DNA from: a virus
Reading direction: 5' to 3' (one strand)
Virus record (IMG/VR): IMGVR_UViG_3300006175_000002
Span: 39,390 to 103,389 of that record
DNA length: 64,000 bases
Shown here: one piece after another, positions 35,079 to 62,434 of the stretch
Position numbering within the stretch: the first letter of the stretch is position 1
Layout: every line of letters starts with the position of its first letter
The notes under the pieces: generated by a model
Told to the model about the DNA's origin: nothing
Database searches by the model: none
Seen by the model: the letters and a program-made list of their open reading frames with translations, nothing else
Translations under genes and position numbers: made by a program

Positions 35079-35152
35079 AGGGGTGTAGCTCAGCAGGTCA
35101 GAGCGCCGATCTCCAAAGTCGGATGTCGCAGGTTCGATTCCTGTCACCCCTG
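35079..35152 (+). tRNA. tRNA-Trp (CCA)
   Basis: Acceptor AGGGGTG / CACCCCT, D-arm GCTC...GAGC, anticodon loop CTCCAAA and T-arm GCAGG-TTCGATT-CCTGT fold cleanly. It is the first tRNA of the array. Confidence 0.9.
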
Positions 35153-35193
35153 CTCAGCCTCGACTAATGGGCCGAGGGCACAGCACCATTGAC

Positions 35194-35215
35194 AAATCCA
35201 CAGTGGATGGCATGA
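35194..35215 (+). repeat. Left copy of a 22-bp inverted repeat flanking the tRNA array
   Basis: The 22 bases from AAATCCACAGT to GGCATGA match the reverse complement of 38308-38329 at 21 of 22 positions. The centre, ATCCAC-A-GTGGAT, is itself a perfect palindrome. The rest of 35153-35251 holds only a hairpin (GCCGGGG...CCCCGGC) and no tRNA. Confidence 0.65.
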
Positions 35216-35251
35216 AAGACGTGCCGGGGGGCTTCCGCTTCCCCGGCGCTT

Positions 35252-35324
35252 CGGGGGCGTGGGGCACGGTGACCCCTCCTGGCCTGGGACCAGGCAACAC
35301 GGCGTTCGACTCGCCGGCTCCCGA
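35252..35324 (+). tRNA. tRNA-Pro (TGG)
   Basis: Acceptor CGGGGGC / GCTCCCG with one wobble, D-stem GGGG/CCCC, anticodon loop CCTGGGA in a 5-bp CCTGG/CCAGG stem, T-arm CGGCG-TTCGACT-CGCCG. Confidence 0.85.
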
Positions 35325-35330
35325 CAACAT

Positions 35331-35404
35331 GCCTCGCAAGCTCCGAAGGTGTGAGCGCCCGGTTGAAGCCCGGGAGGCGCCCCGTTCGATCCGGGGGCGA
35401 GGCA
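35331..35404 (+). tRNA. tRNA-Phe (GAA)
   Basis: Acceptor GCCTCGC / GCGAGGC, anticodon loop TTGAAGC in a CCCGG/CCGGG stem, T-arm CCCCG-TTCGATC-CGGGG. All stems are perfect. Confidence 0.9.
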
Positions 35405-35409
35405 CGCTC

Positions 35410-35480
35410 GGCGGGTTCGGCTATCGGTAGGCCACCTGGTTCTCAGCCAGGCAGGACGGGTTCGACTCCCGTACTCGCTA
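35410..35480 (+). tRNA. tRNA-Glu (CTC)
   Basis: Acceptor GGCGGGT / ACTCGCT with G-T wobbles, anticodon loop TTCTCAG in CCTGG/CCAGG, T-arm ACGGG-TTCGACT-CCCGT. The D-stem has only 3 bp (GGC/GCC). Confidence 0.85.
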
Positions 35481-35481
35481 C

Positions 35482-35530
35482 GTCGGCAGGGGAAGCGTCG
35501 AGGCGCGCAACCTCGCCTCTGCCGGCTCCA
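35482..35530 (+). ncRNA. 49-nt tRNA-like mini-gene without a T-arm
   Basis: An 8-bp acceptor-like stem (GTCGGCAG / CTGCCGGC, one T-G wobble) is followed at its 3' side by TCCA. Inside is one 5-bp stem (CGAGG/CCTCG) with a 7-base loop, CGCGCAA. It fills the slot between tRNA-Glu and tRNA-Gly, where a full tRNA would otherwise stand. No T-arm is present. It could be a decayed tRNA, a processing hairpin or an armless tRNA-like RNA. Confidence 0.4.
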
Positions 35531-35531
35531 T

Positions 35532-35603
35532 GCCGGCGGGGTGTCCACGGTGACATGCCACTCTTCCAAAGTGGAGTAACGGGTTCGACTCCCGTCGCCG
35601 GTT
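35532..35603 (+). tRNA. tRNA-Gly (TCC)
   Basis: Acceptor GCCGGCG / CGCCGGT, D-stem TGTC/GACA, anticodon loop CTTCCAA in CCACT/AGTGG, T-arm ACGGG-TTCGACT-CCCGT. Confidence 0.85.
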
Positions 35604-35617
35604 CCAGAATAGTTCGG

Positions 35618-35689
35618 TGGCGATTCGGCTAATTGGGAGGCCGACGGGCTTTGGTCCCGTCTGTCCAGGTTCGAGTCCTGGATCGCCAG
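35618..35689 (+). tRNA. tRNA-Gln (TTG)
   Basis: Acceptor TGGCGAT / ATCGCCA, anticodon loop CTTTGGT in ACGGG/CCCGT, T-arm CCAGG-TTCGAGT-CCTGG. The fold is clean. Confidence 0.9.
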
Positions 35690-35693
35690 CAAC

Positions 35694-35767
35694 GCCGCGG
35701 TAGGCTAAATGGCAAAGCCGTTTGCTTCAAAAGCAGATGATTGTCGGTTCGACTCCGACGCGCGGCA
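35694..35767 (+). tRNA. tRNA-Leu-like (CAA), short variable loop
   Basis: Acceptor GCCGCGG / GCGCGGC has a G-G mismatch at the last pair. D-stem GGCT/AGCC, anticodon loop TTCAAAA in TTTGC/GCAGA, T-arm GTCGG-TTCGACT-CCGAC. The anticodon CAA reads Leu, yet the variable loop is only about 5 nt, whereas bacterial tRNA-Leu normally has a long arm. Confidence 0.7.
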
Positions 35768-35772
35768 CACCC

Positions 35773-35845
35773 GCCCTTGAAGCTCACCAGGTAGAGCGCG
35801 CGCATGGTAAGCGCGAGGCTGCCGGTTCGACTCCGGCCAGGGGCT
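35773..35845 (+). tRNA. tRNA-Thr (GGT)
   Basis: Acceptor GCCCTTG / CAGGGGC, anticodon loop ATGGTAA in CGCGC/GCGCG, T-arm GCCGG-TTCGACT-CCGGC. Confidence 0.85.
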
Positions 35846-35853
35846 CGTTCAAT

Positions 35854-35925
35854 GCGGCCATAGCTCAATGGTCCGAGTACTGCCTTGCCAAGGCAATGAT
35901 CCGAGTTCGATCCTCGGTGGCCGCT
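35854..35925 (+). tRNA. tRNA-Gly (GCC)
   Basis: Acceptor GCGGCCA / TGGCCGC, anticodon loop TTGCCAA in a 4-bp stem with one C-A mismatch, T-arm CCGAG-TTCGATC-CTCGG. Confidence 0.85.
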
Positions 35926-35957
35926 CGCAACCCACACACATCAGGAGGTGACCCGCA

Positions 35958-36401
35958 GTGGAAGCCGTACTAGTCCTCAACGCCGACCTCGGCCCCCTAC
36001 ACCGGGTCAGCCTCCGCCACGCAATCCGGATGCTCTGCCGCCAAGTCGCCGTGGTCCACGAAGCGGAGCCTGACATACGCATCGGTATCTTCCCGATGCC
36101 CCGGGCTGTCCGCCTCGTCCAGTACATCGTCACGAAATGGCGCTACACGACCGGACCCACCTGGTCCCGCACCGGCGTCATGAACCGCGACGGACACCGC
36201 TGCGGATACTGCCACGGACAGGCGACCACAATCGACCACATCCGGCCCCGCGCGCAGGGCGGCCGTAACTCCTGGCTCAACACAGTCGCCGCCTGCGCTT
36301 CGTGTAACCAGCGTAAGGGCGACCGCACCCCGGAGCAGGCGGGTATGCGGTTGCGTCTCACCCCGACCGCGCCAACGTGGGCGGTCCTGGGGATGCGCTG
36401 A
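35958..36401 (+). CDS. HNH endonuclease inside the tRNA array
   Basis: The 147-residue product has a GTG start preceded by AGGAGGTGA. The C-terminal half carries an HNH fold: CGYCHGQATTIDHIRPRAQGG with the catalytic His in TIDHIRP, then NTVAACASCNQRKGD with the second CxxC pair. The N-terminal half (LVLNADLGPLHRVSLRHAIRML) is the helical domain often found in phage HNH proteins of this class. It splits the tRNA array after the tenth tRNA-type unit and has its own ribosome binding site. It may be a free-standing homing nuclease that targets tRNA genes of related phages, or a packaging nuclease; its position favours the former. Confidence 0.85.
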   Translation: MEAVLVLNADLGPLHRVSLRHAIRMLCRQVAVVHEAEPDIRIGIFPMPRAVRLVQYIVTKWRYTTGPTWSRTGVMNRDGHRCGYCHGQATTIDHIRPRAQGGRNSWLNTVAACASCNQRKGDRTPEQAGMRLRLTPTAPTWAVLGMR

Positions 36402-36436
36402 AAGGGGTGCCGGCGGGTGTGGCGCCGGCCCCACAT

Positions 36437-36508
36437 TCTCCTGTCGTCTAACCGGTAGGATGCCTGATTCTGGCTCAGGTGATCGAGGTTCGAGTCCTTG
36501 CGGGAGAG
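36437..36508 (+). tRNA. tRNA-Gln (CTG)
   Basis: Acceptor TCTCCTG / CGGGAGA, anticodon loop TTCTGGC in CCTGA/TCAGG, T-arm CGAGG-TTCGAGT-CCTTG. Confidence 0.85.
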
Positions 36509-36512
36509 CTTT

Positions 36513-36587
36513 GCTGGTGTAGCTCACGTTGGTTCGAGCGGCTGCCTTGTAAGCAGCAGAACGCGGGTTCGATTCCTGTCACCAGCT
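36513..36587 (+). tRNA. tRNA-Thr (TGT)
   Basis: Acceptor GCTGGTG / CACCAGC, anticodon loop CTTGTAA in GCTGC/GCAGC, T-arm GCGGG-TTCGATT-CCTGT. Confidence 0.85.
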
Positions 36588-36591
36588 CTGA

Positions 36592-36660
36592 GGGCGACGC
36601 ACAGGTGTGCAGGGCTGTTTTGCAAACAGCCTTTGCTCGGTTCGATACCGAGGTTGTCCA
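36592..36660 (+). tRNA. tRNA-Ala (TGC), shortened D-arm
   Basis: Acceptor GGGCGAC / GTTGTCC with wobbles, anticodon loop TTTGCAA in GCTGT/ACAGC, T-arm CTCGG-TTCGATA-CCGAG. The D-arm is only GCAC-AGGT-GTGC, which makes the molecule 69 nt. Confidence 0.75.
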
Positions 36661-36661
36661 C

Positions 36662-36735
36662 GCTCGCGTAGCCCAACTGGTAGAGGCGTCAGGCTTAGAC
36701 CCTGATCAGTGCACGTTCGACTCGTGTCGCGAGTA
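36662..36735 (+). tRNA. tRNA-Leu-like (TAG), short variable loop
   Basis: Acceptor GCTCGCG / CGCGAGT, anticodon loop CTTAGAC in TCAGG/CCTGA, T-arm GCACG-TTCGACT-CGTGT. Like the CAA tRNA, it has a class I variable loop despite a Leu anticodon. Confidence 0.75.
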
Positions 36736-36740
36736 CGCAT

Positions 36741-36814
36741 GATGGCGTGGCCTAGCTGGTTAAGGCACCACCCTGTCAAGGTGGAAATCGCGGGTTCGAG
36801 TCCCGTCGTCATCG
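36741..36814 (+). tRNA. tRNA-Asp (GTC)
   Basis: Acceptor GATGGCG / CGTCATC, anticodon loop CTGTCAA in CCACC/GGTGG, T-arm GCGGG-TTCGAGT-CCCGT. Confidence 0.9.
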
Positions 36815-36817
36815 CTT

Positions 36818-36903
36818 GGAAGGGTGGCCGAGCCCGGTCGATGGCGCCGCGCTGCTAACGCGGTTCACCTCGTGTGACGCGGGTTCAAATCCCGCCCCTT
36901 CCG
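36818..36903 (+). tRNA. tRNA-Ser (GCT)
   Basis: Class II tRNA: acceptor GGAAGGG / CCCTTCC, anticodon loop CTGCTAA in CCGCG/CGCGG, a long variable arm (TTCACC...GTGTGA) and T-arm GCGGG-TTCAAAT-CCCGC. Confidence 0.9.
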
Positions 36904-36907
36904 CCAC

Positions 36908-36981
36908 GTCGCCGTAGCTCAGTCGGTTCGAGCGCTTCGCTGATAACGAAGAGGTCGGGGGTTCGATCCCCTCCGGCGACA
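36908..36981 (+). tRNA. tRNA-Ile (GAT)
   Basis: Acceptor GTCGCCG / CGGCGAC, anticodon loop CTGATAA in CTTCG/CGAAG, T-arm GGGGG-TTCGATC-CCCTC. Confidence 0.9.
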
Positions 36982-36991
36982 CGCACCACAT

Positions 36992-37064
36992 GCCCCCGTA
37001 GCTCAATGGATGGAGCACTTCGCTACGAACGAAAAGGATGCGCGTTCGAGTCGCGCCGGGGGCA
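36992..37064 (+). tRNA. tRNA-Arg (ACG)
   Basis: Acceptor GCCCCCG / CGGGGGC, anticodon loop CTACGAA in CTTCG/CGAAA, T-arm GCGCG-TTCGAGT-CGCGC. The A34 would be expected to become inosine. Confidence 0.9.
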
Positions 37065-37070
37065 CGCAAT

Positions 37071-37144
37071 CAGGGTGTAGCTCAACTTGGTGGAGCACGT
37101 GCCTGGGGGGCACGCGGCCGCAGGTTCAAATCCTGTCACCCTGA
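37071..37144 (+). tRNA. tRNA-Pro (GGG)
   Basis: Acceptor CAGGGTG / CACCCTG, anticodon loop CTGGGGG in CGTGC/GCACG, T-arm GCAGG-TTCAAAT-CCTGT. Confidence 0.88.
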
Positions 37145-37149
37145 CTCAT

Positions 37150-37232
37150 GGAAGGTAGCGCCCAGTGGTGGGCAACCGGTCTTGAAAACCGGGCCGGGGT
37201 GACTCCCGAGGGTTCGACTCCTTTACCTTCCG
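37150..37232 (+). tRNA. tRNA-Ser (TGA)
   Basis: Class II tRNA: acceptor GGAAGGT / ACCTTCC, anticodon loop CTTGAAA in CCGGT/ACCGG, long variable arm GCCGGGGTGACTCCCG, T-arm with TTCGACT. Confidence 0.88.
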
Positions 37233-37233
37233 C

Positions 37234-37307
37234 GCGCTGGTAGCTCAGCCTGGCAGAGCGGCCGATTCTTAATCGGCGGGTCGGGGGTTCAAATCCCTCT
37301 CGGCGCA
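37234..37307 (+). tRNA. tRNA-Lys (CTT)
   Basis: Acceptor GCGCTGG / TCGGCGC with wobbles, anticodon loop TTCTTAA in GCCGA/TCGGC, T-arm GGGGG-TTCAAAT-CCCTC. The 3' ACCA is encoded. Confidence 0.85.
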
Positions 37308-37311
37308 CCAT

Positions 37312-37385
37312 CCCCTCGTAGCTCAGTGGACAGAGCCGCAGGTTTCTACCCTGCGAGGGCGCCCGTTCGAGTCGGGCCGGGGGGA
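37312..37385 (+). tRNA. tRNA-Arg (TCT)
   Basis: Acceptor CCCCTCG / CGGGGGG, anticodon loop TTTCTAC in GCAGG/CCTGC, T-arm GCCCG-TTCGAGT-CGGGC. Confidence 0.88.
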
Positions 37386-37389
37386 CGAT

Positions 37390-37462
37390 CTCCTGCTAGC
37401 TCAATGGATAGAGCACTTCGGTCCTAACGAAACGGTTCCCGGTTCGAGTCCGGGGCAGGAGA
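37390..37462 (+). tRNA. tRNA-Arg (CCT)
   Basis: Acceptor CTCCTGC / GCAGGAG, anticodon loop GTCCTAA in CTTCG/CGAAA, T-arm CCCGG-TTCGAGT-CCGGG. Confidence 0.88.
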
Positions 37463-37470
37463 CGTTTTGC

Positions 37471-37542
37471 GGGCTGCTAACTCAATGGCAGAGTAGCGGG
37501 CTTTTAACCCGAGAGTTCTCGGTTCAAGTCCGAGGCAGCCCA
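37471..37542 (+). tRNA. tRNA-Lys (TTT)
   Basis: Acceptor GGGCTGC / GCAGCCC, anticodon loop CTTTTAA in GCGGG/CCCGA, T-arm CTCGG-TTCAAGT-CCGAG. Confidence 0.88.
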
Positions 37543-37543
37543 C

Positions 37544-37615
37544 CGCGGGGTAGAGCAGTGGCAGCTCACCGTCCTCATAAGTCGGAGGTCACCGGTTCGA
37601 CTCCGGTCCCCGCTT
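37544..37615 (+). tRNA. Initiator-like tRNA-Met (CAT)
   Basis: Acceptor CGCGGGG / CCCCGCT leaves the first pair unmatched (C-T), as initiator tRNAs do, and the D-arm TAGAGCAGTGGCAGCTC matches the initiator style. Anticodon loop CTCATAA; T-arm ACCGG-TTCGACT-CCGGT. The usual three G-C pairs of the anticodon stem are not intact. Confidence 0.78.
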
Positions 37616-37617
37616 CC

Positions 37618-37690
37618 GTCCTGGTAGCTCAGTGGGAGAGCGCCCGCCTGACGCGCGGGAGGTTCGCAGGTTCGACCCCTGCCCGGGACA
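37618..37690 (+). tRNA. tRNA-Val (GAC)
   Basis: Acceptor GTCCTGG / CCGGGAC, anticodon loop CTGACGC in CCCGC/GCGGG, T-arm GCAGG-TTCGACC-CCTGC. Confidence 0.88.
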
Positions 37691-37695
37691 CGCTT

Positions 37696-37767
37696 GGCCT
37701 CGTCGACTATTGGTTAGGTTTCCGCTCTTTCACAGCGGAGGACAGGGTTCGATTCCCTGCGAGGCTA
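37696..37767 (+). tRNA. tRNA-Glu (TTC)
   Basis: Acceptor GGCCTCG / CGAGGCT, anticodon loop CTTTCAC in CCGCT/AGCGG, T-arm CAGGG-TTCGATT-CCCTG. Confidence 0.88.
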
Positions 37768-37772
37768 CTCAT

Positions 37773-37846
37773 TCCGGTATCGCCTAGTTGGTATGGCAAC
37801 GCACTGTTAATGCGTACAAGGGTTGGTTCGAGTCCAACTGCCGGAG
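37773..37846 (+). tRNA. tRNA-Asn (GTT)
   Basis: Acceptor TCCGGTA / TGCCGGA, anticodon loop CTGTTAA in ACGCA/TGCGT, T-arm GTTGG-TTCGAGT-CCAAC. Confidence 0.88.
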
Positions 37847-37854
37847 CCTGTCGT

Positions 37855-37927
37855 GCCTCGCGGTCCCTCTGGTGGGGGTGCCTGACTTATGATCAGGACG
37901 TGGTGGGTTCAATTCCCACGCGGGGTA
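37855..37927 (+). tRNA. tRNA-Ile (TAT)
   Basis: Acceptor GCCTCGC / GCGGGGT, anticodon loop CTTATGA in CCTGA/TCAGG, T-arm GTGGG-TTCAATT-CCCAC. It reads the rare AUA codon directly. Confidence 0.85.
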
Positions 37928-37931
37928 CTTT

Positions 37932-38003
37932 GCGCGCGTAGCTCAGTGGGAGAGCAGCCCGTTCACACCGGGCAGGCCGGAGGTTCGAGTCCTTCCGTGC
38001 GTA
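37932..38003 (+). tRNA. tRNA-Val (CAC)
   Basis: Acceptor GCGCGCG / CGTGCGT with wobbles, anticodon loop TTCACAC in GCCCG/CGGGC, T-arm GGAGG-TTCGAGT-CCTTC. Confidence 0.85.
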
Positions 38004-38005
38004 CT

Positions 38006-38077
38006 GTGTCTATGGCGTAGTGGTCTGCGCGTCGGGTTGTGGCCCCGAAGGTCCCGGATCGTAACCGGGTAGACACC
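38006..38077 (+). tRNA. tRNA-His (GTG), unusual T-loop
   Basis: Acceptor GTGTCTA / TAGACAC, anticodon loop TTGTGGC in TCGGG/CCCGA, T-stem CCCGG/CCGGG. The T-loop reads ATCGTAA instead of the usual TTCGAnT. Confidence 0.8.
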
Positions 38078-38079
38078 CC

Positions 38080-38150
38080 GGGAGTGACGCATGGTGTCGA
38101 GCGCTCGCTGTAAACGAGTAGCCCTGGGGGTTCGAGTCCCTCCGCTCCCA
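38080..38150 (+). tRNA. tRNA-Tyr (GTA), short variable loop
   Basis: Acceptor GGGAGTG / CGCTCCC, anticodon loop CTGTAAA in GCTCG/CGAGT, T-arm GGGGG-TTCGAGT-CCCTC. The variable loop is short although bacterial tRNA-Tyr is normally class II, and the D-arm is poor. Confidence 0.8.
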
Positions 38151-38155
38151 CGCTT

Positions 38156-38229
38156 GCCCTCGTAGCTCAGCGGATTAGAGCACCAGGTTCCGAACCTGAC
38201 GGTCGCGCGTTCGAGTCGCGCCGGGGGCA
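38156..38229 (+). tRNA. tRNA-Arg (CCG)
   Basis: Acceptor GCCCTCG / CGGGGGC, anticodon loop TTCCGAA in CCAGG/CCTGA, T-arm GCGCG-TTCGAGT-CGCGC. Confidence 0.88.
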
Positions 38230-38233
38230 CGTT

Positions 38234-38304
38234 GGCGCTGTGACCGAGTGGTTAGGTGGCGGTCTGCAAAACCGCATACGCCGGTTCGAGTCCGGCCCGC
38301 GCCT
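38234..38304 (+). tRNA. tRNA-Cys (GCA)
   Basis: Acceptor GGCGCTG / CCGCGCC with one mismatch, anticodon loop CTGCAAA in GCGGT/ACCGC, T-arm GCCGG-TTCGAGT-CCGGC. Confidence 0.85.
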
Positions 38305-38307
38305 CGA

Positions 38308-38329
38308 TCATGCCATCCGCTGTGGATTT
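38308..38329 (-). repeat. Right copy of the 22-bp inverted repeat flanking the tRNA array
   Basis: This matches the reverse complement of 35194-35215 with one mismatch, which falls in the central palindrome. It lies between tRNA-Cys and the last tRNA. Confidence 0.65.
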
Positions 38330-38331
38330 CT

Positions 38332-38401
38332 CGCGGGCGGGCCGGCCGCCCAGCTGGCTTTCATACGGCCGGTGTGCCCGGTTCGACACCGGGGCCCGCG
38401 A
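38332..38401 (+). tRNA. tRNA-Met elongator-type (CAT)
   Basis: Acceptor CGCGGGC / GCCCGCG, D-arm GGGC-CGGCC-GCCC, anticodon loop TTCATAC in TGGCT/GGCCG (wobbles at both ends), T-arm CCCGG-TTCGACA-CCGGG. A CAT anticodon could also be tRNA-Ile if modified to lysidine. Confidence 0.72.
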
Positions 38402-38409
38402 CTCTTCTT

Positions 38410-47967: not shown

Positions 47968-49602
47968 GTGTCGAGGTTCAACACTGTGGACAAGCGGGCG
48001 CCGCGGGAGCGGGCCACGTCGCCGATCACGACGGAGGCGACGGCGTCGGGTGTGACGCATGAGGGCGGGCCCGGGTTCGCGCGGAACGCCAAGTCGGAAC
48101 TGTTCTTGCTGGCCGTGTCCAATATGGTCGGTGAGGACACGTTCTACGAGAAGGCCGGCGACCGCGACGGCCGGTACGCGGAGCTGGTGCGCCAGGTGGC
48201 GGTGGCCGACCCGGTGTGGATGCTGGGGTTCCTGGGCTGGCTGCGTAGTGAGGGCAACATGCGGTCGGCGTCGCTGGTCGGCGCGGCGGAGGCGGTCCAC
48301 GCCCGGCTGGCGGTCAACCGGACCATTGAGGCGGGTGGCCACGTCACGGTGGTCGAGTCGGGGAACCGTCAGATGGTGGCTGCGGTGTTGCAGCGCGCGG
48401 ACGAGCCGGGCGAGTTCCTCGCCTACTGGCGGCAGACGTTCGGCAGGAACCTGCCGAAGCCGGTGAAGCGGGGCATCGCCGACGCGGTCCGTCGCCTCTA
48501 CAACGAGTACGCGCTGCTGAAGTACGACACCGCCTCGCACAGGTTCCGGTTCGGTGACGTGATCGACCTCGTCCACCCGTCGCCGTCGGCGCCGTGGCAG
48601 GGGGACCTGTTCCGGTACGCGCTGGACCGCCGCCACGGCCGCAACAACGAGGTGCCGGGGTTGCTGTCCATGGTGCGCCGGCAGGCCGAGTGGCGGGCCA
48701 ACGCTGACGCGTCGCCGCTGCCGGTGGAGGGACTGCTCGACCCGGAGCACATTCGCGGTGCTGGGCTCACGTGGGAGGACGTGCTGTCGCTGCTCGGGTC
48801 GAAGGTCGACAAGGCGCAGCTCTGGTCGGCGCTGATCCCGTCAATGGGGTACATGGCGCTGCTACGGAACCTGCGCAACTTCGACGAGGCCGGCGTGCCC
48901 GACGAGATCGCCGCTGAGGTGGCGGCGCGGCTCGCGGATCCGGAGCAGGTCGCGAAGTCGCGGCAGTTGCCGATGCGGTTCCTGTCGGCGTTCCGGTCGG
49001 TGCCGTCGCTGCGGTGGGGGCAGGCGCTCGAGGTCGCGTTGGGTCATTCGTTGGCCAACGTGCCCCCACTGCCCGGCCGCACGTTGGTCCTGGTCGACGT
49101 GTCCGGGTCGATGGACAACCGGATGTCGGGGAAGTCGGGTCTGTCGCGGGTCGACGCGGCGAAGGTGTTCGGTGCGGCGGTCGCGTTGCGGGCTGAGCAG
49201 CCGACGCTGGTGTGGTTCAACAACGCGTCGGGGCAGGTGCCGGTGCCGAAGGGAATGGCGTTGCTGCGCCTGGTGCAGGTGCTGCCGTCGGCGATGGGTG
49301 GCACAGCGACCGCGGCGGCGGTGCAGCGATGGTTCGACCGCCACGATCGGGTTGTGATCGTCACCGACGAGCAGGCCGGGAACCACTTCGGCGGATGGGG
49401 GTCGGGTCCGGTGGATGCGGCGGTGCCGGCGTCGACGCCGATCTACACGTGGAACCTCGCCGGGTACGAGCGGGGCCACTTGCCGTCAGGGTCGGGTGCG
49501 CGGCACACGTTCGGTGGGCTATCCGACGCGGCTTTTCGGATGATTCCGCTGCTCGAGGCGGGCCGGAACGCGGCGTGGCCGTGGCAGGCCGTCGCAAGTT
49601 AG
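47968..49602 (+). CDS. rsr: Ro60 orthologue (TROVE-domain and vWA protein)
   Basis: The 544-residue product starts at GTG 47968. The N-terminal 350 residues are the helical TROVE ring (KSELFLLAVSNMVGEDTFYE, DPVWMLGFLGWLRSEGNMRSASLV, WEDVLSLLGSKVDKAQLWSALIPSMGYMALLRNLRNF). The C-terminal part is a von Willebrand A domain with an intact MIDAS start, DVSGSM (Asp377), and later VTDEQAG. Ro60 rings bind Y RNAs and misfolded RNAs, and with PNPase or other nucleases support RNA quality control. Two Y-RNA-like genes lie immediately upstream. Phage-borne copies are known. Expression probably depends on the hairpin just ahead. Confidence 0.9.
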   Translation: MSRFNTVDKRAPRERATSPITTEATASGVTHEGGPGFARNAKSELFLLAVSNMVGEDTFYEKAGDRDGRYAELVRQVAVADPVWMLGFLGWLRSEGNMRSASLVGAAEAVHARLAVNRTIEAGGHVTVVESGNRQMVAAVLQRADEPGEFLAYWRQTFGRNLPKPVKRGIADAVRRLYNEYALLKYDTASHRFRFGDVIDLVHPSPSAPWQGDLFRYALDRRHGRNNEVPGLLSMVRRQAEWRANADASPLPVEGLLDPEHIRGAGLTWEDVLSLLGSKVDKAQLWSALIPSMGYMALLRNLRNFDEAGVPDEIAAEVAARLADPEQVAKSRQLPMRFLSAFRSVPSLRWGQALEVALGHSLANVPPLPGRTLVLVDVSGSMDNRMSGKSGLSRVDAAKVFGAAVALRAEQPTLVWFNNASGQVPVPKGMALLRLVQVLPSAMGGTATAAAVQRWFDRHDRVVIVTDEQAGNHFGGWGSGPVDAAVPASTPIYTWNLAGYERGHLPSGSGARHTFGGLSDAAFRMIPLLEAGRNAAWPWQAVAS

Positions 49603-53142: not shown

Positions 53143-54090
53143 TTACTCCTCGCCGGTCACGATATCGGCGTCGACCGTCTTACCGGCAGCCTTACGGGGC
53201 TTCCCGGCGGCGGCGCCTGTGGTGGTTGCCTTGACCCGCGGGCCCGCTGAAGCGATCCTCTCCCACCTCGTGACCTTGAACCGGCCGAAACCCTGCGACC
53301 TCGACGCACCCAACCCGTTCTGCTGGGCAACCAGCCAGAACCTCCGCCACTCCTCGTCGGAGTAGTCGTGAATCGACCGGACAGTGAAATCGATGACCGC
53401 GCCGACCACGTACTCCTCGTACTGGATGCCCGACCCGCGGAACGTGTGCACGAACCTTTGGTTCACCGCCGTCGGCTCGAGGACCGCGTTCAGGCCACCG
53501 CGGAGCGGGTTCTCCTGGTCGGCGAATGTGTAGAGGTGCAGCCGGTCCTCAACAACGAACAGTGTCTCCGCGAAGAACGACAGCAACCCTTTCTTGTTGT
53601 TGTTGCCGTACCCGCGGGCCGACACGAGGTTAGTATCCGCCGCGATCGAGCAGGCTTCTTTCAGGCACGCCTTGAGTTGCCGGCCCTCGACGTAGAGTTG
53701 ACCCCTCGCCGCGCTGGGGAGTCCTTCCTCGGCTTGCTCCTTCGCGTGGGCGATCGCGGCGGGGGTGCGCTTGTCACGCTTGAACTGGTTCAGGTGCTTG
53801 TCGGCTTCCTTCGCGACGGCTTCGTCGGCGGTGGCACCGGTTTCGACCATCGTTTCCGCGACGGCCTGGCGGACGAGGTCGTCACGCTGGAGGCCGAGCT
53901 TCGTGCGGAGCCACCCCTCAACGACGTTCTGATCGACGGGGATCCCGCCGGCGATGATGCTACACACGAGTTGGCCGGCGTACTCGTGGTAGACGTCGGT
54001 TTCGTACTTGTCGAATGCGCCTTCGATGGCGTATTCGAGGTTGAAGACGGGCAGTGCGGGTGCGGGTTTCCGTGCGACTGCGGTGGCCAC
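53143..54090 (-). CDS. RAMP-superfamily (Cas5/6/7-like) protein encoded next to the repeat arrays
   Basis: The 315-residue product starts at GTG 54090 after AAAGGACAC. Residues 132-147 (LYVEGRQLKACLKEAC) fit the early RAMP motif 'xIPGSSLKGALR'. Residues 259-273 (GLGASRSQGFGRFKV) fit the C-terminal glycine-rich loop of RAMP proteins, preceded by a VVGAVIDFTV strand and a DEEWRRFWLVAQQ helix in the usual order. RAMP proteins bind, and some cleave, repeat-containing RNA. A Lys/Ala/Gly-rich tail follows. No other Cas-like gene is visible. It is the first gene downstream of array 1. Superfamily assignment is by motif only. Confidence 0.6.
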   Translation of the reverse strand: MATAVARKPAPALPVFNLEYAIEGAFDKYETDVYHEYAGQLVCSIIAGGIPVDQNVVEGWLRTKLGLQRDDLVRQAVAETMVETGATADEAVAKEADKHLNQFKRDKRTPAAIAHAKEQAEEGLPSAARGQLYVEGRQLKACLKEACSIAADTNLVSARGYGNNNKKGLLSFFAETLFVVEDRLHLYTFADQENPLRGGLNAVLEPTAVNQRFVHTFRGSGIQYEEYVVGAVIDFTVRSIHDYSDEEWRRFWLVAQQNGLGASRSQGFGRFKVTRWERIASAGPRVKATTTGAAAGKPRKAAGKTVDADIVTGEE

Positions 54091-54130
54091 GGGTGTGTCC
54101 TTTCGGGGTTGGGTAGTTGCCGGACTGGCT

Positions 54131-55644
54131 GGGCTTGTCAGTTTCGGCCCGGCGGGGGGAGGCGTCGGTAGGGCTTGTCGGACCTTGGGTCTGGGTCGGC
54201 AAGGCTTGTCGGGGTCGGGTGGACTTTGTGCCACGGAGCGGACAGGTTAGTCGGCGCGGGGGCCGGTTGGGCTTGTCGGGCAGTCAGGAGGGTGCCGGTT
54301 GCGTAGGCGGCATGGGTCGGGTAGTCGAGAGGGAAGGTTGACAGGTAGTGGCGTGGGTTGTCGGAAGAGACGTGAAGTTGGGTGATCTGGCCTGGCTTGT
54401 CAGAAGTGTTCAAGGGTCGTATTGGCTCGTCAGGCTTGGGGCGTAAGGGACAGTTCCGGATTGGATGGGCTTGTCGGGAAACGGATTGAGATGAACGTGG
54501 TTCTGGCCTGGATTGTCAGTGTGCGGCCGGGAGGAACAGAACGGGGGGCGGGGTTGTCAGTAGGGGGCCGGATTGAGTTTGGGCTGGGATGTCGATGTTG
54601 GCTGGTCGCGGCATGGATCGTCGGCGTGAGGCTGAGGTAAATCAGGGCAGGGTAGTCGCATGGGATCGGCAAGGCGCGGATCGTGGCATGGGTAGTCGAT
54701 GAGGGGCGTACGCGAGCGAGGGTGGGGCTGTCAGACACGGGATGTTCATGACCTTGTTCGAGGGACGGGTAGTCGATTGAGGCGGGAAGAACTCAGGGTG
54801 AGGGTGGGCTGTCAGGTACGGAATGGCAGGCGCAGATGGGTGCGGCATGCTTATGGCTTGTCAGATCGGGCAAGAAGCGTTCTCCATGGCACGGGTTGGC
54901 TTGTCGGACGTGACGTGAGCTGGGAATGACTCGGGCCGGGTTGTCAGGGGTGTCGCGTGTAGAAGCGGACGGGCATGGATTGTCGGGTAAGAACAGTGCG
55001 CGGCATGACGCGGGTAGTCAGACTTAGGGGGGGAGAACCAAGGGGAGTTCTGGATGGTCAGCTTCGGCCGGGGTTGAACGCGATCAGGACTGTCGGTTCG
55101 GGGATGGAAATTGGGCGGAGCCAGAAGCGGGGCGGGTTGTCGGAGTGTGGAGTGGTGTACGGGTCCTGGGATGGTATGTCAGTTGAGGGTAGGAAGCGCC
55201 ACGGCTTGGATCGGGTAGTCAGAGCCGGTAGGTACGGGTGGGTTCGGGTTGTCAGATTCGGGCCGCGTCGGCTGGCGGTGGCATGGCTTGTCAGCTTTCG
55301 GAGTGGCGGGGAACAGGTAATCGCGGCATGGCTCGTCAGGTGAGGGTGGGAAGGATCGGGTAGTCAGAATCGGTAGGTGCGGCGCCGAGCCGGGTCGGGT
55401 TGTCAGAGGATGTGGAGTGATGCGGGGCATGTTGGGTCGGGTAGTCAGATCAGACGCGGGTCGTACTTGATGGAGTAGGTGTGGGCTGTCAGAAGCGGAC
55501 TGGGCGGGGAGTCCTGATCTGGGTTGTCAGATTCGGGCGGTAAGGCTCTGAGCTTGTCTTGGGTAGTCAGAAAAGGGCAGGAATGAACGAAGACCAGGGG
55601 TGTCAAGTTTGGGGTGAGGTAGAGCGTACTGGCTCGGATTGTCA
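54131..55644 (-). repeat. Array 1: 40 short degenerate direct repeats with unique spacers
   Basis: Forty copies of an 11-bp motif, all in one orientation (plus-strand consensus YGGNTWGTCRG; minus-strand CYGACWANCCR), were located. Their GTC cores run from 54137 to 55641, with a mean spacing of 38.6 bp (range 25-49). The spacers differ from one another and are strongly G-rich on the plus strand. No open frame with a ribosome binding site fills the region. It lies between two genes of the same minus-strand operon, so it should be transcribed as C-rich RNA. Confidence 0.8.
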
Positions 55645-56196
55645 TTACGCCGCCGCCGCCATCGAATGCCACATCCGCGCCAACTGCTCATCAGTGAACA
55701 GATCCGCCACCGTCTCCGCGCCCCGCCGCGACTTCAACTTCTTCGCCACCGCCCGCAGGAACGCCGCGTTCAACGCGTTCTCCGCCGCCTGCGCCTCATA
55801 ATCGGTCGCGACCGACTCCAGATCAGAAACAGTCAGCGCCGACAGTGGCTTACGGGCCCCGTCGATGACGTACCGCACGTTGAGGAACGACTCAATGCCT
55901 CCCATGTCGCCGGCCTGGGCGCGGCTTGTGGCCGCGGCGAAGTCGTGGCGGCCGTTGACGACGCGGGCGTGGCCGCGGCGGCTGCGTTCAATGGTTGCGA
56001 TCGTGTCGCGGAGCAGGTTCACGGCTTGCATGTGGAGCCAGCCGTGGAGGAGGTCAGGGTCGGTGGTGTCGAGGGTACGGACGAGGTTCTCGGCGATGGT
56101 GCGGTCGGGCACAGTGCCGCGGATGGTGAGGGCGTTGTCGATGTGGACGCGCATGTCGGCGGCGTAGTTACGTTGTTCTGGGGTGTCGGGCGGCAT
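55645..56196 (-). CDS. Protein of unknown function between the two repeat arrays
   Basis: The 183-residue product starts at ATG 56196 after AAGGACG. It is mostly helical: an N-terminal RNYAADMRVHIDNALTIRG, a middle LLHGWLHMQAVNLLRDTIATIERSRRGHARVVNGRHDF, and a C-terminal LTVSDLESVATDYEAQAAENALNAAFLRAVAKKLKSRRG ending with LFTDEQLARMWHSM. It resembles small actinophage early proteins of no known function. Its TAA stop lies against the first repeat of array 1, and its start lies against the last repeat of array 2. That close fit makes a functional link to the arrays likely. Confidence 0.55.
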   Translation of the reverse strand: MPPDTPEQRNYAADMRVHIDNALTIRGTVPDRTIAENLVRTLDTTDPDLLHGWLHMQAVNLLRDTIATIERSRRGHARVVNGRHDFAAATSRAQAGDMGGIESFLNVRYVIDGARKPLSALTVSDLESVATDYEAQAAENALNAAFLRAVAKKLKSRRGAETVADLFTDEQLARMWHSMAAAA

Positions 56197-56214
56197 GTGA
56201 CGTCCTTGGGTCGG

Positions 56215-57206
56215 GGTGGTCGGGTGGGAGGGGAGGCGACGGCGGGTACTGGATAGTCGGGTGGGGACTGGAACGGTTCGGATTGTCGGGGTGTGATGGT
56301 TGAGGTTGGATCGTCGGGATGGTTCTGGAGTGGATAGTCGGATGTGGTCTGGCTCTGGCTCGGAGCGTCGGGTTCGGGAGGTTCGGCTGGTGGTGGACTG
56401 TCTGACTGGGGTGGACAAAGGGCATTGGCTTGGACTGTCGGTTGGTGGTTTGCGCCGGGGTGGATTTTGCTGGTGAGTCAGAATTTCGGTGTGAGTTGCG
56501 GGGCTAGGGCTGGCAAGGGTAGTCAGGGTGTGGCAGGGCAGTTTGGGCAAGATCCGGGATGTCGGATTCGGGTGGGTGGGTGGGCATGAGTTGACAAGTC
56601 GGGGTGGTGCTGGCCGGGTGTTTGGGCCGGGCCGTTGAGGGCGAGGTTGGCTTGTCGGTCCGGGAGAGATCGGGACTGGGGCCGGTTAGTCGGGCGGGGC
56701 GGGTTGAACATTCGCGGCTGGGTGTGGGTTGTCGGACCGGGCCGCGGAGGGAAGGCGAGGTCTGGCTTGTCGGGCTGGTTCTGGCGTAGACACGGGCTGG
56801 ATCGTCGGTTCTTTCGGTGAGGGGTGATTCGGGTCGTCAGAGTGTGGGGGATCGTGGTCAAGTAGTGGCTTGTCGGGGCCTGGATGGGGGCTTGGCTTGG
56901 CCTGTCAGCGGGGGGTTACGAATCGGGAGTGGAGGGGTCTGTCGAATTGGGAGGAAGCAGGTACGGCATGGCTTGTCGGGCAGGTGGGCGCTGCGGCGGC
57001 TTGGTTCTGTCTTGTCAGTTTCGGTGAAGGAGGCGTCGGCAGGGGCTTGGGATGTCAGTTTCGGTTCGGAAGTACCTGGGATGGATTGTCGGTACGGCCA
57101 GTTGCGGATAGGTAAGTCGCGGCTTGTCAGATCCGGGTGCGTGCAGGCAGAGAATGGCTCGGGGTGTCAGTTTCGGTCCAGGAGTTCGCGGAGTTGGCTT
57201 GTCAGC
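56215..57206 (-). repeat. Array 2: about 29 short degenerate direct repeats with unique spacers
   Basis: The same motif and orientation as in array 1 occur here, with GTC cores from about 56219 to 57201 and a mean spacing near 35 bp. Several copies extend downstream as GTCAGTTTCGG. Copies are more often GTCGG than in array 1. The array begins next to the stop of the 57209-57412 gene and ends 19 bp before the start of the 55645-56196 gene. Confidence 0.75.
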
Positions 57207-57208
57207 GC

Positions 57209-57412
57209 TCACCCTAGCGATCCTTCTACGACATGGCAACCCCGCTCGTCGTGGTCCAACGCGATGGTGACAAGAAGGTGCACGGCGTAGCTGACCGTCA
57301 TATTTTGCGCATCTGCGTACGCGGCGACGCGGGCGTACACAGCCGGATCCCACCGCATCGTCTGCATATGCAGGTGACCGGCGGCCGGTGAGGGGAGGCG
57401 TTGTTTCGTCAT
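57209..57412 (-). CDS. Small ribbon-helix-helix-like protein adjacent to array 2
   Basis: The 67-residue product starts in an ATGA overlap. The core TMRWDPAVYARVAAYADAQN, then a strand-helix continuing into MTVSYAVHLLVTIALDHDE, fits a ribbon-helix-helix fold (a strand, then two helices). Such proteins bind short direct repeats in operators and plasmid partition sites. Its gene abuts array 2, which makes the repeats a candidate target. The fold call is tentative. Confidence 0.5.
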   Translation of the reverse strand: MTKQRLPSPAAGHLHMQTMRWDPAVYARVAAYADAQNMTVSYAVHLLVTIALDHDERGCHVVEGSLG

Positions 57413-59686: not shown

Positions 59687-59955
59687 GGGGTGGTCTTTCC
59701 TCTCTGGGTGGGGGGTGGGCAGCCGGTTTCTTTGGCTGTGCCGTCGGCGCGGTAGGTGACGTAATGGTCGAGGCCAGCGGCCGCGTCGTCGGCGACGCCG
59801 CGGACGAGGGTTTGGAGGGCGTCGGCGAGGTAGCGGGGGTTGTCGCCGGGAGCTTGGACGCGTTCCCATTCGATGCGTTGGGGCATGCCGATCTCTTCGG
59901 TTGCCCGGTTGATGTCGTATTCGATCTGGACGACGAGGTACGCGCGGATCCTCAT
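59683..59955 (-). CDS. Small early-operon protein
   Basis: The 90-residue product starts with a strand (MRIRAYLVVQIEYDIN), then EWERVQAPGDNPRYLADALQTLVRGVADDAAAGLDHYVTY, an alpha/beta unit. It overlaps both neighbours by 4 bp. No family is recognised. Confidence 0.45.
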   Translation of the reverse strand: MRIRAYLVVQIEYDINRATEEIGMPQRIEWERVQAPGDNPRYLADALQTLVRGVADDAAAGLDHYVTYRADGTAKETGCPPPTQRGKTTP

Positions 59956-62171
59956 GTCGGCTCCTCCTCGTCATCGGTGGTGATGTACGCGTCGTCGACG
60001 GCGACGGTGTTCGTGACTTGGGCGATCATGTGCAGGTCGGCTGCGGTTGGCTGGGTGATGTCGGGTTCGGTCCAGTCGTCGTCGGCGGCGTGGTCGGGGT
60101 CGACGCGGTTGACCGGTACCTGTGTGGCCGTTTCGTTGTTGAGGAGGCCGGCGAGGTAGGTGTCCGCGTCGGCGTCGCTGGTGATGGTTGGGTGGGTGTG
60201 CCATGGGTCGGTGCAGGCGTTTTTGGGTGTGCCGATGCTGTGGCAGGTGGGACAGGACCGGGCGACGAAGCCAGCACGTGCAACGCCCGGCCGGGGTGTT
60301 ATTATGACGGGCGGCACCCAACGGCGACCGTCTTTGCTTTGGTGCCAGTTGCCGTCGTGGCCTTGGGTGAGGACGCAGGGGCCGGCCAGTCCGATGACGG
60401 TGCCGTCGGATGAGCGGGCGGCGAGGGCGGTGGCGGCGCAGGCCGGGCTGCGCGTCGGGCTTGCTGATCCGTCCGGGTGCCAGGTGACGGCGATGTCTGC
60501 CGGTTGGGTGGTGTCGATCGGTGCGCCACCGGTGCCGTACTGAGGTTCGGTGAGACGGGTTGTGGTGGTGAGGAGGTCTTCGACGCGGATGAGGTCATTG
60601 AGGGCGGCGACCCGGGCACGCTTGTGGCCGCGGGCGCGTTTCTTCCACCGCTTCACGCGGCGGCGGAGCTGGGCGATGGTGTCCTCGTCGGCGTCGGTGA
60701 GTCGCCGCCAGTCTCGTTCGGCGCTGGCAGCTTCGTAGCGGATCCGGTCCCGTTCGGTGCGGGCTTGGTCGAGCAGGTCGGCGAGGTCGTTCACCTGGGC
60801 TTCGCGGGCTTCGAGTTCGATCCGGTACCGGTTGGTTTCTGTCCCGGCCACGTCGACCTGAACTTGCAGGTCGGCGATGCGGGTTTTCAGGGCGGCTGTG
60901 CTGGCGCGCAGGGCATCGTCGGAATCGGTAGTGAGTCGGTCGCCCTCGGCCCCCCATAGGGACCATAGGAAAGCGATGCGTGCTGCGGTCACCGTCTTGT
61001 TGTGCAACTCCACGTCGATCGGTTCGATGTGGTACGGCTTGTCGGGCTGCACCATGCCGAGGGTGGACTTGAGGTGAACGAGGCGGTTGCCGCGGCAGGC
61101 GAAGATGTTGGGTGCTACTTCCATGGCAGTGTGGCCGGAGGTCCGGTAGTCGGTTGTAGTGACCACGGCGACGCCTGCCTTCGCGGCAACCTCAGCAAGG
61201 TAGGTCAGGTTGGCGTAGGTATCGTCGGCCAGCCCACCTGTGAGCGGGTCGACGATAAGGAGTGCCACGTTGTCGTCGGCGCACAGGGTGGCTAGTTTGT
61301 CTCCGATCGACATGATCGGTGGGAATGCGTGCATGACCCGTTGAGTGTCGGCGCCGGCGGCGATGAGGCGGGGTACGACGGTCGTGTTGGGGTCGTCTTG
61401 GCCGCCGTTGATCCATACGACGTTGCAGGGGGTGTCGGCGAACAGGCCGGGCAGCTGGCCGCGGGTGACGCGGGCGGCGAGCCACGCGGCGGTCAACGAT
61501 TTGCCGGAGCCTTCGGTACCGGTGATGACGGTGAGGGCGCCGAGGGGGATCCGCTGGTCCCATAGCCACGTGGGGGCGGTCGGGGTCGGATCGGGGTCGG
61601 GTTTCTCAGCTGTGATGTAGGCGGTGACGGCGGCCTCGAGCTGGTCTATGCGCGCAGAGGAGGATGTGCGGTGCCCGGCCAGTTCGTAGTTACCCCACTC
61701 GGTGACCATGTCGACGGCGGCGTCCACCACTGGCCGGTACCAGCCGATCTGGGTGCGGGCGGCGGCGAGGAGCGCTTCGGTTCGTTCGGCCCAGCCGCGG
61801 TTCTGGTCGGCGCGTGTCCGTTCGGTGTCGAGGTCGGTCAGGGTGGCGTCGAGGGTGGCGGTGAGTTGGTCCCGTTCGTCCTGGACCTGCTGCAACGTTG
61901 CTACAGAGCGGGCGGTCTGGTCGCGCAGCTCGGCGGTCAGCCGGTTCACTTCGGCGCGCCCGGTGTTGAAGGCGTGGGTAAGCCGGTCGATCTCGCCACG
62001 GTGGTCGGCGCGGAGTCGGTTCATGTTGGCTTCGAGCCGATTCACTTCGATGAGTAGGGCCGGTACGTCGTTGTACGTGTCGACGGCGGTGGTGGGGATC
62101 AGCCCGACTTCGAGCATGCGGGCCCGTTGCGTAGCGCGGTGCCGGATCGCAGCCAGTTCACCAGGGGTCAT
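59952..62171 (-). CDS. Coiled-coil P-loop ATPase (RecA/AAA_25-like) with a C-terminal zinc region
   Basis: The 739-residue product starts at ATG 62171 after AAAGGA. Residues 1-210 are mostly coiled coil. About residues 215-420 form a RecA-type NTPase: IPLGALTVITGTEGSGKSLT (Walker A GTEGSGKS), VVWINGGQDDP, VALLIVDPLTGG (Walker B) and VVTTTDYRTSG. Related AAA_25/RepA-type ATPases act as hexameric helicases or replication accessories. A second coiled coil follows, and near the C-terminus CPTCHSIGTPKNACTDPWH looks like a zinc knuckle. It could load on replication forks or on early mRNA. The P-loop is certain; the biological role is inferred. Confidence 0.7.
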   Translation of the reverse strand: MTPGELAAIRHRATQRARMLEVGLIPTTAVDTYNDVPALLIEVNRLEANMNRLRADHRGEIDRLTHAFNTGRAEVNRLTAELRDQTARSVATLQQVQDERDQLTATLDATLTDLDTERTRADQNRGWAERTEALLAAARTQIGWYRPVVDAAVDMVTEWGNYELAGHRTSSSARIDQLEAAVTAYITAEKPDPDPTPTAPTWLWDQRIPLGALTVITGTEGSGKSLTAAWLAARVTRGQLPGLFADTPCNVVWINGGQDDPNTTVVPRLIAAGADTQRVMHAFPPIMSIGDKLATLCADDNVALLIVDPLTGGLADDTYANLTYLAEVAAKAGVAVVTTTDYRTSGHTAMEVAPNIFACRGNRLVHLKSTLGMVQPDKPYHIEPIDVELHNKTVTAARIAFLWSLWGAEGDRLTTDSDDALRASTAALKTRIADLQVQVDVAGTETNRYRIELEAREAQVNDLADLLDQARTERDRIRYEAASAERDWRRLTDADEDTIAQLRRRVKRWKKRARGHKRARVAALNDLIRVEDLLTTTTRLTEPQYGTGGAPIDTTQPADIAVTWHPDGSASPTRSPACAATALAARSSDGTVIGLAGPCVLTQGHDGNWHQSKDGRRWVPPVIITPRPGVARAGFVARSCPTCHSIGTPKNACTDPWHTHPTITSDADADTYLAGLLNNETATQVPVNRVDPDHAADDDWTEPDITQPTAADLHMIAQVTNTVAVDDAYITTDDEEEPT

Positions 62172-62434
62172 CGGTTCGTTCCTTTCGGCGGCGTCATGGA
62201 CAGAATCCAGGTCAACGAAGTGATCAGCGAGATTGACCCCGCCGCCTGCGCCATCCATGGCCACGACGGATGTACGGGAGTCACCAGCATCCACATCACG
62301 GCTTCGACGGCGCCGAGGAACACAGCCAACCCAAGCGCGATCAGGAACCGGAACAGGTAGAAACGCCCCCAAGGGCTAGGTCTGAGATTCACGTGTTCAC
62401 GCCATGCGGGGTGTTCCGATCGGTGGTACGTCAC
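62168..62434 (-). CDS. Small membrane protein
   Basis: The 88-residue product starts at GTG 62434 in a GTGA overlap. A polar N-terminus (EHPAWREHVNLRPSPWGRFY) precedes two transmembrane helices (LFRFLIALGLAVFLGAVEAV, AAGSISLITSLTWILSM). No known family. Confidence 0.5.
   Translation of the reverse strand: MTYHRSEHPAWREHVNLRPSPWGRFYLFRFLIALGLAVFLGAVEAVMWMLVTPVHPSWPWMAQAAGSISLITSLTWILSMTPPKGTNR

What the first reader, a model, noticed from the sequence alone, without database searches (positions are those of the whole stretch)
54131..57206. About 70 short same-orientation repeats with unique spacers in two arrays, embedded in an early phage operon
Seen: an 11-bp motif (plus strand YGGNTWGTCRG, minus strand CYGACWANCCR) recurs 40 times in 54131-55644 and about 29 times in 56215-57206, always in one orientation. 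The mean spacing is 38.6 and 35 bp (range 25-49). The spacers are unlike each other and strongly G-rich on the plus strand. The arrays occupy 2.5 kb of otherwise noncoding DNA inside a tightly overlapped minus-strand operon, and each runs into the next gene. Neither CRISPR (long exact repeats), iterons nor VNTRs look like this. Inference: because a RAMP-like gene follows, the transcript may be a repeat-spacer precursor of short RNAs. Alternatives are a protein-binding array for partition or replication, a rut-like C-rich leader controlling polarity, or box D-like (CUGA) guides related in logic to TIGR arrays, although no Nop-domain gene is visible here.
Basis: partly seen in the sequence, partly recalled or inferred. 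Interest (0 to 1): 0.95.

Follow-up and report, generated by a model that had tools for sequence, protein, structure and literature searches.

The report
Phage RNA-guide array with Cas7-like protein
This stretch of a virus that infects bacteria looks like a VIPR system, a very recently described CRISPR-related machine in which a Cas7-like protein uses five-letter-repeat RNA guides against rival viruses, and it carries an unusually large set of about 65 guide units whose DNA strand is flipped relative to the studied examples.

Summary
One-orientation motifs (YGGNTWGTCRG on the plus strand; 40 and 26 well-scoring copies) form two noncoding arrays, confined to this part of the 103-kb virus record. 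Related arrays sit beside relatives of the neighbouring RAMP-like gene in many viruses, found independently from the motif, from the RAMP protein and from the gene between the arrays. Where flanking genes are 80-90% identical, the motif persists and the spacers are unrelated. The RAMP model matches Csm3/Cas7 folds. This fits VIPR (preprint PMC13142463): Vipr protein, YNNGG-repeat vrRNA guides, a vap gene, anti-mobile-element targeting. So the guide-RNA idea is right in kind, but the system is neither CRISPR nor TIGR. Here the GG strand lies opposite to vipr in 67 of 75 arrays, whereas it lies on the vipr strand in SUSP1 and LittleE; the base after GG is not restricted to C/T; and the window has the most units found (64; median 9). 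Which strand is the guide is unresolved, and no target was found. Verdict: VIPR-type system, new variant; expression, targeting and function here are inferred.

The parts
53143..54090 (-). vipr: RAMP (Cas7/Csm3-like) protein, 315 aa, GTG start with RBS GAAAGGA
   Evidence: Weak Cas7_IIId/Cas6/Csm4 HMM hits; AF2 model pLDDT 76.7; Foldseek PDB top 50 all CRISPR type III (Csm/Cmr) or type VII effector-complex chains, E 5e-7, probability 1.00; glycine-rich loop GLGASRSQGFGRF conserved
54131..55644 (+). Array 1: 40 GTC-delimited units of GGNNN pentamers (GG-rich strand given)
   Evidence: lies between vipr RBS and vap stop codon
55645..56196 (-). vap: conserved vipr-associated gene, 183 aa, mostly helical, fold unknown
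   Evidence: Relatives in 50 vipr loci counting near-duplicates, always on the vipr strand; AF2 pLDDT 89.5; no PDB fold match
56213..57206 (+). Array 2: 26 well-scoring units plus a few degenerate ones

Best explanation
The region is a VIPR-type locus (Viral Interference Programmable Repeat): a single RAMP protein (Vipr), a conserved accessory gene (vap) and two long arrays of overlapping or adjacent guide units. Each unit is GTC followed by about 5-8 pentamers of the form GGNNN, ending in GGN[T/A][A/T] before the next GTC. By analogy with the published system, the array is transcribed and made into guide RNAs, Vipr subunits line up on the RNA with the invariant GG marks held by the protein, and the variable bases between them pair non-contiguously (a 1-nt skip rule in the published systems) with double-stranded DNA of competing phages, satellites or plasmids, repressing their transcription. 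Shown here: the parts, the 5-nt grammar, the predicted RAMP fold, the association of array with vipr and vap, and rapid turnover of the variable bases. Inferred: transcription, processing, RNA binding, the skip rule in this clade, and the targets. The GG strand (plus) is favoured as the guide because the studied vrRNAs carry GG, but the conserved opposite orientation leaves the strand open.
For: Three-way association: loci pulled from IMG/VR by the DNA motif alone encode a Vipr relative beside the array in L008, L009, L016, L023, L029 and L032; loci pulled by Vipr protein alone show >=3-motif clusters in 63 of 93 (>=5 in 47; near-duplicates included) against 0-2 for six permuted or reversed motifs, with density 2.79/kb within 1 kb of vipr and 0.53 beyond; loci pulled by vap alone have vipr in 13 of 14, the exception being a contig end, and a cluster of >=5 motifs in 11. 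GG periodicity at lag 5 in the window and in L002, L008, L023 and L029. 199 strict units in 43 loci: GTC + 4-9 GGNNN blocks, with positions 4-5 nearly uniform in base use. RAMP fold. Array replaced while flanking genes stay about 80-90% identical: L076/L078, L049/L079, L060/L062, L073/L086. VIPR description: PMC13142463. Profile alignment to the SUSP1/LittleE/phiHSIC Vipr relatives is collinear through the G-loop, P-value 0.0012. SUSP1 and LittleE intergenic tracts show the same GG-every-5 pattern.
Against: The base after GG is not restricted to pyrimidine: G 0.37 in the window, 0.47 in middle blocks of relatives. No structured 3' tail was recognised. The window arrays are less regular than those of L029. 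Sequence homology to SUSP1 Vipr is weak (hhalign probability 19.5%). No target was found with the 1-nt skip rule. GG strand is opposite to vipr in 67 of 75 arrays, unlike SUSP1 and LittleE, and no promoter-like signal was seen on either strand.
Confidence: 0.85

Rival explanations
1. Same system, but in this clade the guide is the C-rich strand: the array is co-transcribed with vap and vipr and processed from the operon mRNA into NNNCC-type guides, so the code is the complement of the published one.
For: C-rich strand is co-directional with vipr in 67 of 75 arrays, both upstream and downstream; the array spans exactly from vap stop (often TGA of the first TGAC boundary) to vipr RBS, leaving no room for a dedicated promoter outside coding DNA; no promoter signal for the GG strand.
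Against: All characterised vrRNAs carry GG (PMC13142463), and SUSP1 and LittleE have GG on the vipr strand; 8 of 75 arrays here have GG on the vipr strand; Thermoactinospora L125 keeps mostly GGY-type blocks on the strand opposite vipr.
Confidence: 0.3
2. A protein-binding DNA array (partition, replication or stoperator-like sites), the motif being the binding site.
For: Short, asymmetric, same-orientation sites, as in mycobacteriophage stoperators (from memory); spacing not fixed.
Against: Does not explain the 5-nt GG phasing that continues through the spacers, the tie to a RAMP gene, or the hypervariable spacers.
Confidence: 0.06
3. A rut-like C-rich leader that controls Rho-dependent polarity of vipr expression.
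For: C-rich, G-poor untranslated RNA between vap and vipr if the operon strand is read.
Against: Rut sites need no phased pentamers, no GTC boundaries and no hypervariability; arrays also occur downstream of vipr.
Confidence: 0.05

Closest known systems
VIPR (Vipr + vrRNA; SUSP1 and P. fulva types; PMC13142463)
   Same: Phage-encoded single RAMP, vap partner, GG-every-5-nt tandem repeats with hypervariable bases, long noncoding tracts beside vipr; the preprint mentions staggered arrays with overlapping vrRNAs, which this may be
   Different: About 65 GTC-delimited units instead of 4 separate ~100-nt RNAs; third base of pentamer not restricted to C/T; no recognised tail; GG strand opposite to vipr; vap not recognisably related to the SUSP1 vap. 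The supplementary figures with array types could not be read here
CRISPR-Cas type III/VII effector (Csm3/Cas7)
   Same: RAMP fold, repeat-variable array
   Different: No long exact repeats, no other cas gene recognised among the 6 proteins scanned
TIGR-Tas arrays
   Same: Phage arrays of short guide units of about 36 nt (from memory)
   Different: RAMP protein instead of a Nop-domain Tas protein; 5-nt GG grammar instead of box C/D edges

Membership tests
VIPR | RAMP-fold protein with RRM core and glycine-rich loop, encoded by a phage | tested here: met
   virus record
VIPR | Long noncoding tracts beside vipr made of tandem pentanucleotides with GG every 5 nt and variable bases between | tested here: met
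VIPR | Pyrimidine after GG (strict GGY). Not defining for every type: the preprint allows a related consensus | tested here: not met
   G 0.37, C 0.29, A 0.19, T 0.15 in window internal blocks
VIPR | Conserved vipr-associated gene (vap) | tested here: met
   183-aa family on vipr strand in 50 loci; which published vap it corresponds to is unknown
VIPR | Sequence relationship to SUSP1 Vipr | tested here: inconclusive
   collinear hhalign, P 0.0012, probability 19.5%
VIPR | Structured 3' tail on each vrRNA | not tested
   no tail recognised by eye; only GTC boundaries; no fold analysis was run on the array
VIPR | vrRNA expressed and bound by Vipr | not testable with these tools
   needs RNA sequencing and pull-down
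VIPR | Targets matched by the 1-nt skip rule | tested here: inconclusive
   no excess over other skips in ~1.0 Mb of fetched loci; single guides tested in 201 genomes and in IMG/VR without a hit; low power
CRISPR array | Near-identical repeats over 20 nt | tested here: not met
   11-nt degenerate motif
TIGR-Tas | Nop-domain Tas protein encoded nearby | not tested
   none turned up among the nine proteins scanned with Pfam; no targeted search made

The most novel reading that the evidence does not exclude
A RAMP-guided system in which a phage stores dozens of guides between vap and vipr on the strand opposite to the published orientation, so that either guides are made antisense to their own operon or Vipr in this clade reads a complementary C-marked code (NNNCC) cut from its own mRNA.
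Probability: 0.3. Interest if true: 0.85.

Novelty: new variant of a known kind. Interest (0 to 1): 0.66.

Why it matters
VIPR has been reported, as far as the library held here shows, only in a 2026 preprint, as a possible ancestor of CRISPR RAMP effectors. This window adds an apparent member with the largest guide set among the loci fetched here (64 clustered units, median 9). The relatives show the array turning over while the genes stay, which is what a guide memory should do. They also expose a testable contradiction: the marked strand is opposite to vipr in nearly 90% of this clade's arrays, so one strand-specific RNA experiment would show which strand is the guide.

Tried and rejected
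CRISPR, iterons and VNTR were rejected on repeat structure. Some motif-pattern hits (L011, L019, L027) are short-unit tandem repeats and were excluded. Search for targets: all-against-all of 199 strict units in about 1.0 Mb of loci with skips 0-3 showed no excess at skip 1; one 16-base guide of Thermoactinospora L125 gave 0 hits in 201 genomes of its family; a 28-base composite of two window units gave 0 hits in IMG/VR. Plain BLAST of the arrays against phages and plasmids gave nothing. Promoter and terminator scans gave no signal. Single-sequence searches of IMG/VR with the window proteins found nothing; alignments were needed. The vap model matched no solved fold and the vap family is not recognisably related to the SUSP1 vap.

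Full report
What is there. The window is bases 39390-103389 of a 103,389-base virus record, 67% G+C. The arrays are real and confined: 40 motifs at 54131-55645 and 26 at 56250-57205, one orientation (58 plus, 1 minus at score >9), few elsewhere in the window. Both lie on the GG-rich plus strand, inside a block of minus-strand genes. From right to left the module reads array 2, a 183-aa gene (vap), array 1, and the 315-aa RAMP-like gene (vipr). Array 1 begins about 40 bases from the vipr start codon and ends at the vap stop codon.

The grammar. GG recurs every 5 nt within the arrays (lag-5 autocorrelation 1.53 and 1.38 here, 1.7-2.2 in stricter relatives). In the strictest relative, L029, nearly every unit is GTC plus whole pentamers GGNNN, giving spacings of 33, 38 or 48. 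In the window the phase slips more, but GGNNN blocks still make up 52.6% of blocks against 35.3% in shuffles that keep the G runs. The last block before GTC is usually GGN[T/A][A/T]. Positions 4 and 5 of middle blocks use all bases almost evenly.

The protein. The RAMP-like gene has weak Cas7_IIId, Cas6 and Csm4 profile hits. Its predicted structure (pLDDT 76.7) matches solved CRISPR RAMPs: 81 PDB matches at E <= 0.001, the 50 listed all from type III (Csm or Cmr) or type VII effector complexes. The viral library gives a protein already named a Cas system-associated RAMP superfamily protein.

The association, tested from three sides. A DNA pattern scan blind to proteins returned L008, L009, L016, L023, L029 and L032, each with a Vipr relative beside the array. 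A protein scan blind to the motif gave 93 loci, near-duplicates included, of which 63 hold clusters of three or more motifs; permuted motifs give 0-2. A scan with the vap family gave 14 loci, 13 with vipr and 11 with a cluster of at least five motifs. Members occur in Microcystis phage Mae-JY09 and in Streptacidiphilus carbonis and Thermoactinospora rubra genomes.

Turnover. In pairs such as L076/L078, L049/L079, L060/L062 and L073/L086, vap and/or vipr regions are 78-92% identical in DNA, while the array between them aligns no better than shuffled sequence and shares 0-3 14-mers, although the motif persists. The variable bases change fast and the grammar is kept, as expected of guides.

What it is. 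The parts match VIPR, described in a 2026 preprint (PMC13142463): a phage RAMP called Vipr, a vap gene, and vrRNAs of YNNGG repeats that read DNA non-contiguously with one skipped base, acting against competing phages. From the layout that paper describes, SUSP1 vipr is taken to be KT454805.2 28474-29061, flanked by such tracts. The window Vipr aligns collinearly with the SUSP1, LittleE and phiHSIC proteins through the G-loop (P 0.0012), a remote relationship.

What differs. The third base of the pentamer is not restricted to C or T. There is no obvious tail. The window has the most units found (64 clustered motif copies against a median of 9). Most strikingly, in 67 of 75 arrays the GG strand is opposite to vipr, whereas in SUSP1 and LittleE it is the vipr strand. 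Since the array fills the gap between vap stop and vipr RBS, the C-rich strand should be in the operon mRNA. Either guides are made antisense, or this clade uses the other strand. Promoter scans do not decide. I favour the GG strand, because all studied guides carry GG and because L125 keeps mostly GGY-type blocks on the strand opposite vipr, but only moderately.

What was not shown. No RNA, no binding and no target. Target searches had little power and found nothing. The vap fold has no match in the PDB. The supplementary figures of the preprint, which show the seven types, could not be read, so this clade may already be one of them.

Noticed in passing
window 35079-38402: A cluster of 33 tRNA genes on the plus strand in the virus record.
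   Followed up: no
window 47968-49602 (+): A TROVE/Ro60-type RNA-binding protein gene in the same virus.
   Followed up: no
window 59952-62372 (-): An 806-aa protein with an AAA_25 domain and a PHROG DNA polymerase/primase match, in the same minus-strand gene block.
   Followed up: no
window 57209-57412 (-): A 67-aa protein that looks like a ribbon-helix-helix regulator (by eye only), next to array 2.
   Followed up: no
L042 7854-9002: The vipr gene is split over two reading frames in this contig.
   Followed up: no
L124 (Streptacidiphilus carbonis) about 5500-5800: A run of N interrupts the array, either an assembly gap in repeats or masked sequence.
   Followed up: no
window 54097-54104: The RBS of vipr is the reverse complement of an array-like GTCCTTTC, so ribosome site and array boundary overlap.
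   Followed up: partly
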